From Chloroflexota bacterium (lineage in GTDB: Bacteria > Chloroflexota > Dehalococcoidia > Lucifugimonadales > Australimonadaceae): DNA of 64,000 bases. The stretch lies in NCBI GenBank assembly GCA_009838965.1, contig VXQP01000104.1, forward strand, positions 1 to 64,000, read 5' to 3'. Positions 18,992-23,610 of the stretch are shown in pieces. Numbering within the stretch: the stretch's first letter is position 1; every line of letters begins with the position of its first letter. Under the pieces are notes generated by a model, which saw only the letters and a program-made list of their open reading frames with translations, did not search any database and was not told the DNA's origin. The translations under genes and the position numbers were made by a program.

Positions 18992-19645
18992 ATGGACGAC
19001 GCAGCCGCCAATACGCAGTCCCGCATCGACGAGATAGCCGCCCTCTCACTCGACGAGTTCCGAGCCAAACACGAGCGGCGCGAGCAGGCGATCAAGGTTT
19101 CACGCGAGGTCGTGCGGACCTCCGCGAACGCCATACGCGCCATCCATCGCAACGAGCTTGACGAGGCTCGCGAGCTCATCGGTGCGGCGGGTGCGCTCGT
19201 CCGCGAGACCCAGCAGACCCTCGAGGGCCACCCGGACCTCTATTTCACCGGCTACACCCAGGACGCCCAGAAGGAGTACGCGGAGGCATGCGCCGTGCTC
19301 GCGTTCATCGCCCGCACGGAGCTCCCGCTCCCGGCAGACATCGGCGTCGAGACGCCGTCCTACCTCAACGGGCTTGCCGAGGCCGCGAGCGAACTGCGGC
19401 GCTACATCCTCGACTCCCTCCGCCGCGACGACGACTCCCGTGCCGAGGAGCTGATGCGCTACATGGACGACGTCTACAACATCCTCGTCGTCATGGACTT
19501 CCCGGACGCCCTCACCTCCGGCCTCCGCCGCACCACCGACCAGCTGCGCGGCGTCCTCGAGCGCACCCGCGGTGACCTCACCATGACCATGCGCCAGCGC
19601 CGCCTCGAGCGGCTGCTCAACGACCGCTCTTGGGATTCTCGATAG
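18992..19645 (+). CDS. translin family protein (3' end altered by insertion)
   Basis: REVVRTSANAIRAIHRNELDEARELIGAAG...GHPDLYFTGYTQDAQKEYAEACAVLAF...YLNGLAEAASELRRYILDSLRRDD...MDDVYNILVVMDFPDALTSGLRRTTDQLRGVLERTRGDLTMT; translin-like signature. Terminates ...LLNDRSWDSR*, whereas the repeat copy at 23.57 kb reads ...LLNDRSAT*. Confidence 0.78.
   Translation: MDDAAANTQSRIDEIAALSLDEFRAKHERREQAIKVSREVVRTSANAIRAIHRNELDEARELIGAAGALVRETQQTLEGHPDLYFTGYTQDAQKEYAEACAVLAFIARTELPLPADIGVETPSYLNGLAEAASELRRYILDSLRRDDDSRAEELMRYMDDVYNILVVMDFPDALTSGLRRTTDQLRGVLERTRGDLTMTMRQRRLERLLNDRSWDSR
19587..19629 (+). repeat. left direct repeat (attL-like) of the translin insertion
   Basis: CCATGCGCCAGCGCCGCCTCGAGCGGCTGCTCAACGACCGCTC. 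Confidence 0.85.
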
Positions 19646-20399
19646 CAGACTCCGCGCCTGATGGGGCCAGTTCATCTGCTATGGGGTCGAGTACCTTGCA
19701 GATCTCCGCATATAAGTCCTCGTCGGAGTAGTGCACAGGACGCTTTGCGGAACCTGGGCCACGCCCGGGAAAGCGGGTTGCTAATGCCCTTGCAAGTGGC
19801 AAGAAGTTCCCCGGTTTCGTCAATGTCAAACGTTGCGAGGGCTCCAACTCTTCGAACCAACGTGCAAGCACATCGCGTACGTTCTTGGTTCTGATGGCTC
19901 CTCGTCGATAGATTTCCCTGGCGTTGGTGCGACTGCCTCCGAATGCCATCATAGCTGTGGCAAGCTCCTGCTCCTGTAGCCAAAGCCCGACAGCGAAGAC
20001 ATCGCGCTCCAGCCTAGTGGGGTCAGGTTCTCGATTCGGGGTTAGTTCTTGCCAAGCCTTCTCTGAGCTTCCGTCTGCACGCACACCAAGCCTGCACTTG
20101 CGGGCTATTGCCTGCCAAAGCGACATCTGCTCGCCTGGGTCAAGGTGTTTAGATTGCACAAGCCCCGATTCCATCAACGCCCGGCCGACCGCCCATCGCT
20201 TGACGAAAGCACGTTGCTCGGCCTCGGCTGTCTTTACATCAGCAGCCAATGCCACGGCTCGGTCAAGCATCTCGTCAATCTCACGGTCCAGCGCTTCCGC
20301 TTCGGCTCGGAACAACTCTCCACGTAGGCTCGCCGGACGGACGGTCTCCACCACGCTGCTCAGCGTACTGTCGGCTCGATTCCATATCTTGACCGGCAT
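19617..20399 (-). CDS. unknown protein encoded in the insertion
   Basis: MPVKIWNRADSTLSSVVETVRPASLRGELFRAEAEALDREIDEMLDRAVALAADVKTAEAEQRAFVKRWAVGRAL...; ATG overlaps the stop of the upstream ORF. Confidence 0.7.
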   Translation of the reverse strand: MPVKIWNRADSTLSSVVETVRPASLRGELFRAEAEALDREIDEMLDRAVALAADVKTAEAEQRAFVKRWAVGRALMESGLVQSKHLDPGEQMSLWQAIARKCRLGVRADGSSEKAWQELTPNREPDPTRLERDVFAVGLWLQEQELATAMMAFGGSRTNAREIYRRGAIRTKNVRDVLARWFEELEPSQRLTLTKPGNFLPLARALATRFPGRGPGSAKRPVHYSDEDLYAEICKVLDPIADELAPSGAESAIENPKSGR

Positions 20400-21013
20400 T
20401 AATCGCGCTCCTCGAATAGGCTCAGCGAACGTGAAGCGCAGTCCCTTGCGAGCCTGTTGTACTCGTCCAAGTGTCCAGTGTAACCCCGCAGAGCCGCCAA
20501 CTCGTGCATCTTGTCGCTGTAGTTCTCCCAACGATCGGGGTTGGCACCGGCCGGTGTGCCACTTAACAAGTCGTCCAACCGAGAGAGGTCTCCTTCGTCT
20601 ACGGGGTCCATGACCCACTCAATGATGCCCTCGGCACAGACATCTACGACGAAAGCCGAAACACCAGACAAACGCTGGGTGGTGCGAACCGGGCCCGTAT
20701 CCAACGCCCTATAAAGAGGGTAACCCGAGGGATAGCGCAGTACCCAACTGGTGGGGTCGCTCTTGTCAAACTGCCAGCGGGGGTGGGGGTCATCACTGGA
20801 GATCTGTTCGATTCTGAATGGTGGCCAGTCCTGGGACTGCGCAGGGTCAACCTCTATGTCTAATGTGCGGCTGGCGTGGGCCACCACGTCGCCGCTGAGG
20901 TAGAGGTCTGCGCGCAACGTGTGGCGCCCTGGCGGCAGAGCAACTGACTGCATTGAAGGCTCAGGGGGCACAGTGGGATTAACTGTAATGCGGGCCTTGG
21001 ACACCGGGCACAC
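20399..21013 (-). CDS. Ig/CARDB-like segment plus unknown C-terminus; probably the separated 3' part of the GHKL ATPase gene
   Basis: GTG start; KARITVNPTVPPEPSMQSVALPPGRHTLRADLYLSGDVVAHASRTLDIEVDPA continues the beta-sandwich pattern interrupted at the end of 20979-22946. Confidence 0.55.
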   Translation of the reverse strand: MCPVSKARITVNPTVPPEPSMQSVALPPGRHTLRADLYLSGDVVAHASRTLDIEVDPAQSQDWPPFRIEQISSDDPHPRWQFDKSDPTSWVLRYPSGYPLYRALDTGPVRTTQRLSGVSAFVVDVCAEGIIEWVMDPVDEGDLSRLDDLLSGTPAGANPDRWENYSDKMHELAALRGYTGHLDEYNRLARDCASRSLSLFEERD

Positions 21014-22946
21014 GGGAAGGAGTTGCTCCGGCAGGGATTCCCTGCGTCACAACAGGTGCCATGTCTGCGAGGAGGAGGTCTCCGAGGCTTGCAGTCAACT
21101 GCAGCGTTTGGCTCTCTGCCGTGTGGTTGGTGACACTTATCTGGACTCCGACGGTATCGCCACTGTTGATGCGGCGTTGTCCGGTGGAGTGGTTCTCCAC
21201 GGATATGGATATCGTGTATGGCTTGGAATGGCGCTCAGGCGGGTCCTCGTTCACGAACATACTCCGGGATGCTTGAGCGACCTGCACGCCACTTGCTTCG
21301 ACCCTCGCCACAAGTCTCCATTTCCCATCACGCGCACACTGCAACTTTCCTTGAGTCGGTGTGCCGTTGATGACCTGATAATCCCCGAAACGCGCGATTC
21401 CCTCTCCATTCCGCCACTCCACCTCCCGGCTTGCGACGAGTGTGCGCGACTCTGATTCGTCGGCTTTCATCAATTCCAAGGATACGACGGCGCGCTTGGA
21501 GGCAGGTGGTTCGAGTCTAGTGATGACCTCTAGATTGCGGATGTATTGCCCCCTGTTGACGCGCGTAGACCTAGAATCGGGGTACTCCAGATGTAGTTCG
21601 CATGACCAGCGCTCAGACAACCCGGGAAGCAATTGAGAAGGTGCTGACGCTCTTCCGCGATCGCCTCGTGGTGACCGCGTTCGGGGATTCAGGAATCGTA
21701 GGAACTCCATAGCTGCGTCACGCTCTGCCTCTGGGGCTTGGCGAATGGACTCCTGCGTGCCCCATCCTTGTTCCGTTGCGAACTCTTCCACCTTGCTTAC
21801 GATGACCGAGAGCATGGGTCTGATTCCTGACGAGCGCCGGTCGAACCGTTCGTGCTGTGAACTCTCCGCCCTACGAAGTTCAGGTTCAGAGGCTTGGTCG
21901 AATTCAACGAAGCCCCGAAATCCCGGCCGCTTGTCACGAGGGACGTAGTCTGACAGAGTCTCCGTCCCCAAGGTTTCTATCCATTGCTGACCCCTCAGCA
22001 GTTGGACACCCCAGAATTGCGCACTAGCCCCTTCGATGTCGGGTTCATTTAGCGATTCATCGTAGAGGAGGACGATACGCTTGATCTTCAACCCGGCAAC
22101 ATCCACATTCTCGTAGGTTCGAACTCGGGGCGTTGACCTTCTCCACGGCTCGGACTCCCACCACTCTGGAACCGAAACAGCCTGGCGGATTCCGTCCTCG
22201 TCAACCAAGCTGATGCTCATGCCAACCTGAATGGCCCGCCACCAGCACCGCTGGAGCCACGAATGGAGTTCGCCAGACTGGAAGGCTTCGAGAGCTTCAT
22301 GAGACAAGTGGGGCACTATGACGCGAGTGCCCACTTGAGTGAGTGGTTCCAGCCCTAGCTGAATATCCGTGCCGTCGGCAGATGTGTAATGAGAGGACAC
22401 TATTCGGCGAGCTTCTTCAGCGCTGAAGGGCGGCGTCAGCACGGTATCGAACGGGCTGGCATAACGGACGCCTAGGCGATACGTACCATCTGAGAGAAGC
22501 GTGTCGTAGAGAATCATCATCCGGTCTTGTTGGGAAGAAGCCACCCTCGGTAACGCTGAGTGGTACAAGAAGGCAGCTTTGCCCTGCCCTCGCGAACCCA
22601 AGGCCGCGTCGTCTTCCTTGGTGTACCCCATGCCTTCAAACGCGGCCCAATTCTCGTCTGCGCGAAGCACATTACCCCTCGCTTGAATCTCGTCCAAGGT
22701 GAGGGCGGGACCTCGGAGCCCCGTAGTGTTGGAGTCGGTGACGGTAAGCATGTAGGCACGGGTGCCGTCCAAGAGAGGACGTTGGTACAATCGGTATTCC
22801 ACTTGAGCATGACCTCGGGCAGCATCCTTGGAGTTTTGCACTGGCTCTTGCGCCAGTGCGCGGATAGGGCCCATTCCGTAGCCCTCGATGATGTTGCGCA
22901 CGATGGTGACCATGTTAGTGACGGTCGGTACGAACTGAGATGTCAT
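20979..22946 (-). CDS. GHKL (Hsp90/MORC-like) ATPase-domain protein
   Basis: N-box QEPVQNSKDA (ExxxNxxDA), G1-like VTDSNTTGL, G2-like GSRGQGKAAFLYHS. Confidence 0.72.
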   Translation of the reverse strand: MTSQFVPTVTNMVTIVRNIIEGYGMGPIRALAQEPVQNSKDAARGHAQVEYRLYQRPLLDGTRAYMLTVTDSNTTGLRGPALTLDEIQARGNVLRADENWAAFEGMGYTKEDDAALGSRGQGKAAFLYHSALPRVASSQQDRMMILYDTLLSDGTYRLGVRYASPFDTVLTPPFSAEEARRIVSSHYTSADGTDIQLGLEPLTQVGTRVIVPHLSHEALEAFQSGELHSWLQRCWWRAIQVGMSISLVDEDGIRQAVSVPEWWESEPWRRSTPRVRTYENVDVAGLKIKRIVLLYDESLNEPDIEGASAQFWGVQLLRGQQWIETLGTETLSDYVPRDKRPGFRGFVEFDQASEPELRRAESSQHERFDRRSSGIRPMLSVIVSKVEEFATEQGWGTQESIRQAPEAERDAAMEFLRFLNPRTRSPRGDRGRASAPSQLLPGLSERWSCELHLEYPDSRSTRVNRGQYIRNLEVITRLEPPASKRAVVSLELMKADESESRTLVASREVEWRNGEGIARFGDYQVINGTPTQGKLQCARDGKWRLVARVEASGVQVAQASRSMFVNEDPPERHSKPYTISISVENHSTGQRRINSGDTVGVQISVTNHTAESQTLQLTASLGDLLLADMAPVVTQGIPAGATPSRVPGVQGPHYS

Positions 22947-22987
22947 GGCATCGCTCCCGAAGTACGTGGTCGTCTACTCGTTGAGGG

Positions 22988-23473
22988 TTACCCAGTACGC
23001 CGTCGGCGCTGCCTTCGCGCTCCGACGTTGCGGGCATTGGGGTAATCCCTGCGCAGAGCGTAGAACCCTTTAGCAGTAGGGCGGACAAAGCGGGGGTCCT
23101 GGACCATGCGGGCGGTCAGGTTGGCCCATGGAGTCGCTCCATAGAGGTCTCCTCCACGTCTGATGACCTCCTGTGCCAGCTCCTTGTAGTACATTGGCTC
23201 TCCGTTCCGTTCACTCAGCACTGCCTCGGCGATATCACACACATGGCTGCGGTTGCCAGTATTGTAGTTGTGTTGTGTCTGTGGCATAGCATCTTGGCTT
23301 TCAGATGACTCTTGGTCGTCTAGGAGCGCTCGTACATGCTCTAGGCGTCGCTGCACGAGTGAGAGGCGTTCTTGGGCTTCCCGGACTCTCATCTGAAGAT
23401 CTGCTGCCTCCGCTTCCAGGTGTTGGCGCTCAGTGGCTAGCAGACTGTTTAGGTTACCTTCCATATCGTGCAT
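22988..23473 (-). CDS. coiled-coil plus HARE-HTH-like (winged helix) protein
   Basis: AEAVLSERNGEPMYYKELAQEVIRRGGDLYGATPWANLTARMVQDPRFVRPTAKGFYALRRDYP fits the HARE-HTH pattern; N-terminal heptad-like region. ATG 23473 or 23464. Confidence 0.65.
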   Translation of the reverse strand: MHDMEGNLNSLLATERQHLEAEAADLQMRVREAQERLSLVQRRLEHVRALLDDQESSESQDAMPQTQHNYNTGNRSHVCDIAEAVLSERNGEPMYYKELAQEVIRRGGDLYGATPWANLTARMVQDPRFVRPTAKGFYALRRDYPNARNVGARRQRRRRTG

Positions 23474-23567: not shown

Positions 23568-23610
23568 CCATGCGCCAGCGCCGCCTGGAACGCCTGCTCA
23601 ACGACCGCTC
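23568..23610 (+). repeat. right direct repeat (attR-like), carrying the probable native translin 3' end
   Basis: CCATGCGCCAGCGCCGCCTGGAACGCCTGCTCAACGACCGCTC, then CGCCACGTGA; encodes MRQRRLERLLNDRSAT*. Confidence 0.85.

What the first reader, a model, noticed from the sequence alone, without database searches (positions are those of the whole stretch)
20399..23473. Candidate conflict/defence-type operon: HARE-HTH-like protein plus GHKL ATPase plus unknown effector
The cassette encodes a coiled-coil protein with a HARE-HTH-like winged helix (a domain known from restriction-associated and chromatin proteins). It also encodes a protein with a canonical GHKL N-box (ExxxNxxDA) and G2-like loop, and a third protein of no recognised family. 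GHKL ATPases paired with DNA-recognition modules occur in predicted prokaryotic conflict systems. I cannot match this combination to a named system, so the defence role is inference.
Basis: partly seen in the sequence, partly recalled or inferred. Interest (0 to 1): 0.72.

Follow-up and report, generated by a model that had tools for sequence, protein, structure and literature searches.

The report
Accessory HARE–GHKL–D defence-like gene cassette
This is a compact set of three co-transcribed bacterial genes that comes and goes at fixed chromosome sites. It pairs a probable modified-DNA reader with a DNA-clamp-type ATPase and an unknown helper protein, and it looks like an uncatalogued relative of restriction-type anti-virus systems.

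Summary
HARE-HTH is real (Pfam). GHKL is supported by conserved motifs and a predicted fold resembling topoisomerase VI-B, although no Pfam model recognises it. The 'third protein' is not a gene: in relatives it is the C-terminus of the GHKL protein (one ~845-aa ORF), cut off here by a frameshift. The real third gene, D (19617-20399, TAATG overlap), was missed. D has a confident helical model without structural matches.

A-B-D recurs in 18 loci, all assigned to Chloroflexota where a phylum is named; an actinobacterial relative has B-D only. A sister clade, including other phyla, has B-D-C5 methylase-HhH glycosylase. In the window the cassette is bounded by 43-bp, 93% identical direct repeats at a translin-like gene's 3' end. 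Two same-genus genomes have the empty site and one carries a toxin-antitoxin-like cassette there. In Anaerolineae it is present or absent between nuoA and rpoB. No integrase is encoded.

Best reading: an accessory, restriction-like anti-invader system, probably reading DNA modification. Defence is inferred; no nuclease was identified and nothing was tested. New variant of the paraMORC/GHKL kind.

The parts
22988..23473 (-). Gene A: 161-aa coiled-coil + HARE-HTH winged-helix protein, first gene of the operon
   Evidence: ORF; Pfam HARE-HTH 4.1e-8; 18-row alignment with conserved basic tail
23078..23236 (-). HARE-HTH domain (residues 80-132 of A)
20979..22946 (-). Gene B, first reading frame: GHKL ATPase + S5-like transducer + start of the Ig-like domains (655 aa before the frameshift stop)
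   Evidence: ORF; alignments; fold
22818..22847 (-). GHKL N-box EPVQNSKDAA
22716..22748 (-). GHKL G1-like motif (TDSNTTGL; TDxGTxGL in most homologues)
22578..22601 (-). GHKL ATP-lid/G2 motif LGSRGQGK, invariant G, G, G, K
20991..20998 (-). Site of the extra base (CAAGGCCC versus CAATCCC in G393) that breaks gene B
20399..21013 (-). 'Third protein' of the finding: C-terminal part of gene B in the shifted frame (end of Ig-like domain plus helical C-terminal domain)
   Evidence: one ORF with B in L020/L027 and L023; tblastn L020 residues 642-843; dN/dS about 0.1
19617..20399 (-).
   Evidence: model mean pLDDT 89 without PDB or viral fold match
19587..19629 (+). Left copy of the 43-bp direct repeat, inside the 3' end of the translin-like gene; also holds the D stop codon
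23568..23610 (+). Right copy of the 43-bp direct repeat (93% identical)
   Evidence: single copy at the empty sites of G221 and G282
18992..19645 (+). Translin-like host gene whose 3' end is the insertion site (context, not cargo)

Best explanation
A three-gene accessory anti-invader cassette, A-B-D. B (one ~845-aa protein when intact) is a GHKL ATPase of the topoisomerase-VI-B/MutL/paraMORC type with two Ig-like arms and a helical tail, so it probably works as an ATP-gated dimeric clamp on DNA. A (coiled coil + HARE-HTH) probably recruits or licenses the clamp by reading the DNA, most likely base modification of incoming DNA. D is an obligate partner that couples the clamped state to the outcome, either cleavage through an unrecognised active site or blocking of the DNA. 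It works like a restriction system that needs no methylase of its own (type-IV-like); the sister clade instead carries a C5 methylase and a mismatch-type glycosylase and looks like a conventional restriction-modification system. Shown here: gene structure, HARE domain, GHKL motifs and predicted fold, conserved A-B-D order, presence/absence at fixed sites, alternative cargo at the same site, faster divergence than the flanks. Inferred: clamp action, modification reading, defence, the effector step. In the window genome B is frameshifted, so this copy may be inactive unless the extra base is an assembly error.
For: HARE-HTH in A. GHKL motifs invariant and Topo VI-B-like predicted fold with Ig-like domains. 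Order A-B-D conserved in 18 loci. B-D with C5 methylase + HhH-GPD in 5 loci from Dehalococcoidia, LCP-89 and Atribacteria. Precise insertion with 43-bp repeats and two empty sites; an alternative XRE/ImmA-PIN cassette flanked by the same repeat in G179. Presence/absence between nuoA and rpoB in Anaerolineae: 10 present, 16 empty of 30. dS of the cassette 0.8-2.1 versus 0.32-0.43 for flanking genes, dN/dS about 0.1. Precedent: paraMORC in R-M (PMC2292703); a GHKL-nuclease protein needs both active sites against phage (PMC12137116); HARE-HTH proposed to sense cytosine modification (cited in PMC11037411, PMC10853773).
Against: No nuclease motif or fold found in A, B or D. Not recognised by PADLOC as any system; 10 of 25 B homologues hit PDC-M33A weakly, and where checked only over the N-box region. 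No relatives of B in viral contigs or plasmids. The HARE group's neighbours at the best-sampled site are housekeeping genes (nuo, rpoB), not a defence island. The window genome has a C5 methylase of its own, so a simple anti-5mC system would need motif specificity. The window copy of B is broken.
Confidence: 0.5

Rival explanations
1. MORC-like silencing or compaction: A-B-D loads as a topological clamp on foreign DNA and blocks its transcription or replication without cutting it.
For: No nuclease found in any of the three proteins; GHKL + transducer + Ig-like architecture; [quoted passage not shown]
Against: Sister-clade operons carry methylase and glycosylase, the hallmark of cutting R-M systems; D may hide a new active site.
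Confidence: 0.22
2. A DNA-repair or mismatch-type accessory system (MutL/Vsr-like) rather than defence: the B-D pair assists repair of deaminated methylcytosine with the HhH glycosylase in one clade and a HARE reader in the other.
For: HhH-GPD glycosylase with an endonuclease-III iron-sulphur motif (PF10576) and C5 methylase in the sister clade; MutL-family resemblance.
Against: HARE-type loci lack methylase and glycosylase; presence/absence at hotspots, fast divergence and repeated breakage are atypical for repair genes.
Confidence: 0.1
3. A selfish or addiction cassette (toxin-antitoxin-like) whose product mainly maintains itself at the site.
For: Same-site alternative cargo in G179 is XRE/ImmA-PIN; small, integrase-free, repeat-bounded.
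Against: No toxin fold among A, B, D; B is found broken while A and D stay intact, without an obvious neutraliser among the remaining genes.
Confidence: 0.08
4. Chromosomal regulator of the neighbouring respiratory/nuo region (HARE is also an RNA polymerase delta domain).
For: HARE resembles RNAP delta (NCBIfam weak hit); cassettes lie near nuo genes in the window and in Anaerolineae.
Against: Other loci are in unrelated contexts (L028, L029, L035, L043) and most relatives at the nuoA-rpoB site lack it.
Confidence: 0.05

Closest known systems
paraMORC / prokaryotic MORC GHKL ATPases in restriction-modification systems (Iyer, Abhiman & Aravind 2008, PMC2292703)
   Same: N-terminal GHKL + S5-like module, sporadic and laterally mobile distribution, linkage to C5 methylases in the sister clade, no homology to a cellular housekeeping GHKL family
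   Different: B is not recognised by Pfam GHKL models, has two Ig-like domains and a helical tail, always pairs with D, and in the HARE clade has neither helicase, REase nor methylase
VcSduA, Shedu type I-D / paraMORC3 (PMC12137116)
   Same: GHKL ATPase of an accessory locus with tested anti-phage role; clamp-like architecture
   Different: no PD-(D/E)xK/DUF4263 nuclease domain in B or D
HEF_HK/Response_reg_2 paraMORC-like pairs next to C5 methylases (PMC8011034)
   Same: two-gene GHKL + partner unit next to C5 methylases
   Different: B and D match neither Pfam HEF_HK nor Response_reg_2
HARE-HTH-REase fusions in modification-dependent defence (PMC10853773; Aravind & Iyer 2012 cited there)
   Same: HARE-HTH as probable modified-DNA reader in a conflict locus
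   Different: HARE is on a coiled-coil protein without a nuclease, beside a GHKL ATPase
Topoisomerase VI-B (1z59, 9o8p)
   Same: GHKL + transducer + Ig-like predicted fold
   Different: no Top6A (Spo11-like) cleavage subunit, sequence identity only about 10%

Membership tests
GHKL ATPase superfamily | N-box (E/D)xxxN and glycine-rich lid motifs | tested here: met
   Q37, N38, D72, G77, G118, G121, G123, K124 invariant in 25 homologues
GHKL ATPase superfamily | Bergerat fold | tested here: met
   AlphaFold model of an intact relative; Foldseek to Topo VI-B, Topo IV, Grp94
HARE-HTH | score above Pfam gathering cut-off | tested here: met
   33.9 vs 25.9 bits; 37.8 bits in an orthologue
MORC proper | GhXhhpXXRhl motif in the S5 domain (PMC2292703) | not tested
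   not searched systematically; B not placed in a tree with MORCs
paraMORC1-5 (as a kind) | GHKL + S5 in an R-M-type gene neighbourhood | tested here: inconclusive
   GHKL + transducer-like fold met; methylase neighbourhood met only in the sister clade, not in the HARE clade; no direct comparison with paraMORC sequences
Shedu type I-D | DUF4263 PD-(D/E)xK nuclease domain | tested here: not met
   Pfam and PADLOC scans negative
Restriction-modification system | cognate methyltransferase in the locus | tested here: not met
   none in HARE-type loci; present in 5 sister-clade loci
Restriction-modification system | nuclease | tested here: inconclusive
   none recognised; D fold has no match
Type IV (modification-dependent) restriction | selective action on modified DNA | not testable with these tools
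   inferred only from the HARE domain
Known catalogued defence system (PADLOC 2.0) | component HMM hits | tested here: not met
   only weak PDC-M33A hits, confined to the N-box region in the members inspected
Integrative element with own integrase | att-like direct repeats and empty sites | tested here: met
   43-bp repeats, empty sites in G221 and G282
Integrative element with own integrase | encoded recombinase | tested here: not met
   no recombinase among A, B, D; host has 3 tyrosine recombinases, all on other contigs

The most novel reading that the evidence does not exclude
A new family of GHKL-clamp immune systems built on an obligate B-D core. Its recognition module has been exchanged: a self-marking methylase + glycosylase in one clade (with archaeal and candidate-phylum relatives of the core), a HARE modification reader in the Chloroflexota clade. 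D would be a new effector fold, and the cassette moves without an integrase through repeats of a host gene's 3' end.
Probability: 0.3. Interest if true: 0.78.

Novelty: new variant of a known kind. Interest (0 to 1): 0.6.

Why it matters
If the reading is right, it adds an uncatalogued GHKL-based defence architecture. Defence scanners miss it because B lacks a recognised GHKL model and D has no family at all. The same B-D core with either a methylase or a HARE reader would make it possible to test how a restriction-modification system and a modification-dependent system interconvert. The B protein offers a bacterial parallel to MORC and topoisomerase VI clamps. The integrase-free, repeat-bounded cassettes at the translin 3' end point to an unexplained route of defence-gene turnover in Chloroflexota.

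Tried and rejected
Three separate proteins plus an 'unknown effector': rejected, the third ORF is the C-terminus of B. Programmed frameshifting of B: rejected, because the lesions in window, L023, L031, L034, L042 and L044 lie at different places and are of different kinds. D as a DUF1016/YhcG-like domain (idea from memory, suggested by a W..GR.. pattern): no Pfam support. D or B in phages or plasmids: nothing found for B; D could not be scanned in viral contigs because no stretch was conserved enough. Flanking direct repeats for the other cassettes: none above chance in L028-L044 or the methylase type, so the att-like repeats are specific to the translin site. Vertical inheritance of the cassette between window and G393: disfavoured by dS. 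Translin 3' end as an insertion site outside the genus: no repeat duplication in 25 loci from the rest of the order. Sequence searches of the PDB with the B, D and A profiles gave nothing useful. Literature: no held paper mentions HARE-HTH together with GHKL, or GHKL with HhH-GPD and methyltransferase; this covers open-licence PMC papers only.
Full report
What is there. On the minus strand the window holds one operon of three genes, not three plus an unknown. A (22988-23473) is a 161-aa coiled-coil protein with a HARE-HTH domain (Pfam 4.1e-8, above cut-off). B (start 22946) is a large GHKL protein. D (19617-20399) is a 260-aa protein whose ATG overlaps the preceding stop (TAATG). The window differs from G393 by one extra base in a GGCCC run near 20995, which shifts the frame. 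Both halves have dN/dS of about 0.1 against G393, so the break is recent or an assembly error. D lies outside the coordinates given.

Is B a GHKL ATPase? Pfam and NCBIfam give no hit for the window or G393 protein; one distant homologue has a weak HATPase_c_3 match. Across 25 homologues the N-box, the TD(x)GT(x)G loop and the G(S)RG(Q/R)GK lid are invariant or nearly so. An AlphaFold model of the intact relative (mean pLDDT 83, pTM 0.52) shows GHKL, an S5-like transducer, two beta-sandwich domains and a helical C-terminal domain. Foldseek finds topoisomerase VI-B first (5e-9), then Topo IV and Grp94; Ig-like proteins match the beta-sandwiches. The low pTM means the relative placement of the domains is not reliable.

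D. The D family is confidently modelled (mean pLDDT 89, pTM 0.85) as an almost all-helical protein with no PDB or viral-structure match (best E 0.41 and 0.18) and no credible Pfam, NCBIfam, PHROG or PADLOC family. Conserved residues in the HARE clade include W69, W95, W140, a run of acidic residues in the first long helix and a GxG(S/A)A..P.H loop. No known catalytic motif is recognisable.

Conservation. A scan of about 85,000 species genomes with a six-sequence profile gave 32 loci. Eighteen independent HARE-type loci, counting the window, have A-B(-D) in this order; all that carry a phylum name are Chloroflexota. D is missing only where the contig ends (L030), and one actinobacterial locus (L035) has B-D without A. 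A separate, strongly supported clade has B-D followed by a C5 cytosine methylase and an HhH-GPD glycosylase in Dehalococcoidia, LCP-89 and Atribacteria (L045, L046, L048, L049, L050), with archaeal relatives. So B-D is the core and the recognition module differs between clades.

Mobility. The cassette is bounded by 43-bp direct repeats, 93% identical (19587-19629 and 23568-23610), scoring 31 against a best shuffled score of 14. The left copy is the 3' end of a translin-like gene. Two same-genus genomes, G221 and G282, have the uninterrupted site with a single repeat copy. G179 has a different cargo, XRE/ImmA peptidase plus a PIN-like protein, between copies of the same repeat. G264 has a DUF4011 helicase and an MTES_1575 nuclease protein at this place, without a detected second repeat. 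The A-B-D copies of the window and G393 are far more diverged at silent sites (dS 0.8-2.1) than the flanking genes (0.32-0.43), so they were probably acquired or replaced independently. No recombinase is encoded in the cassette; the genome has three tyrosine recombinases, all on other contigs. In Anaerolineae the cassette sits between nuoA and rpoB: of 30 relatives, 10 have it, 16 have an empty site, one has a B fragment beside an IS1-like insertion, and three are uninformative or different. Three of the ten were genomes already known to carry it (one of them the centre of the search). There it has no flanking repeats above chance, so the movement mechanism is not established in general.

Breakage. 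B is disrupted in six of 19 HARE-clade loci: window frameshift, L023/L041 TGA, L031 TAG, L034 TAG, L042 and L044 frameshifts. A and D are intact where complete. This could mean B is costly, but B is about twice as long as A and D together, so six versus none is not statistically strong; some cases could be assembly errors.

Interpretation. GHKL proteins of this broad kind (paraMORCs) were predicted in 2008 to act in laterally mobile restriction systems (PMC2292703), and one GHKL-nuclease protein, VcSduA, has since been shown to need ATPase and nuclease function for phage defence (PMC12137116). HARE-HTH is proposed to sense modified DNA, more likely cytosine than adenine (statements in PMC11037411 and PMC10853773). 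The most economical reading is an accessory anti-invader system in which a B clamp, gated by ATP and directed by the HARE protein, acts with D on incoming DNA. Whether DNA is cut is unknown. The step from 'reader instead of methylase' to 'type-IV-like' is an inference.

Verdict. The defence interpretation is plausible, strengthened by comparative evidence, and untested. I rate it a new variant of a known kind (GHKL/paraMORC conflict systems), with an interesting unknown partner protein.

Noticed in passing
L019:1233-3077 (G179): At the same translin 3' end, a 1.8-kb cassette of XRE/ImmA (Peptidase_M78) plus a PIN-like protein lies between 64-nt direct repeats (91% identical), again without an integrase.
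   Followed up: partly
L022:1367-5433 (G264): DUF4011/AAA helicase and AAA + REase_MTES_1575 proteins, a defence-like cargo, sit between the translin-like gene and hppA; no second repeat was detected.
   Followed up: partly
L031, L032, L034, L036-L040, L042, L044; L091-L120: The nuoA-rpoB interval of an Anaerolineae group is a presence/absence site for the A-B-D cassette. Nuo proteins are mostly over 90% identical (NuoC lower) while B is mostly 59-63% identical.
   Followed up: yes
L045, L046, L048, L049, L050: Conserved operon of GHKL protein, D-like protein, C5 cytosine methylase and HhH-GPD glycosylase in several phyla: an apparently uncatalogued R-M-like system.
   Followed up: partly
L025:11519-11791 (-), L047:1627-1854, L050:7699-7938: A 75-90-aa protein of no Pfam family (conserved stretch RTNEVLKRLKILGNCSN in L050) precedes B in the non-HARE clade, in the position of the HARE gene.
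   Followed up: no
window 20995; L023:8420; L031:8094; L034:9234; L042:10513-10523; L044:8729: B is broken at different positions in 6 of 19 HARE-clade loci while A and D stay open.
   Followed up: partly
L090:1486-1632 (G747); L100: Remnants of the D 3' end (43 aa in G747; 46 bp in the empty nuoA-rpoB site of L100) suggest past loss of the cassette.
   Followed up: partly
L024, L026: Non-HARE B-D operons lie in the topA-xerC/D-pepP-efp region in two different Dehalococcoidia, at two different points of it: possibly another insertion hotspot.
   Followed up: no
L099:27-873: B C-terminus followed by an IS1-like transposase fragment at the nuoA site.
   Followed up: no
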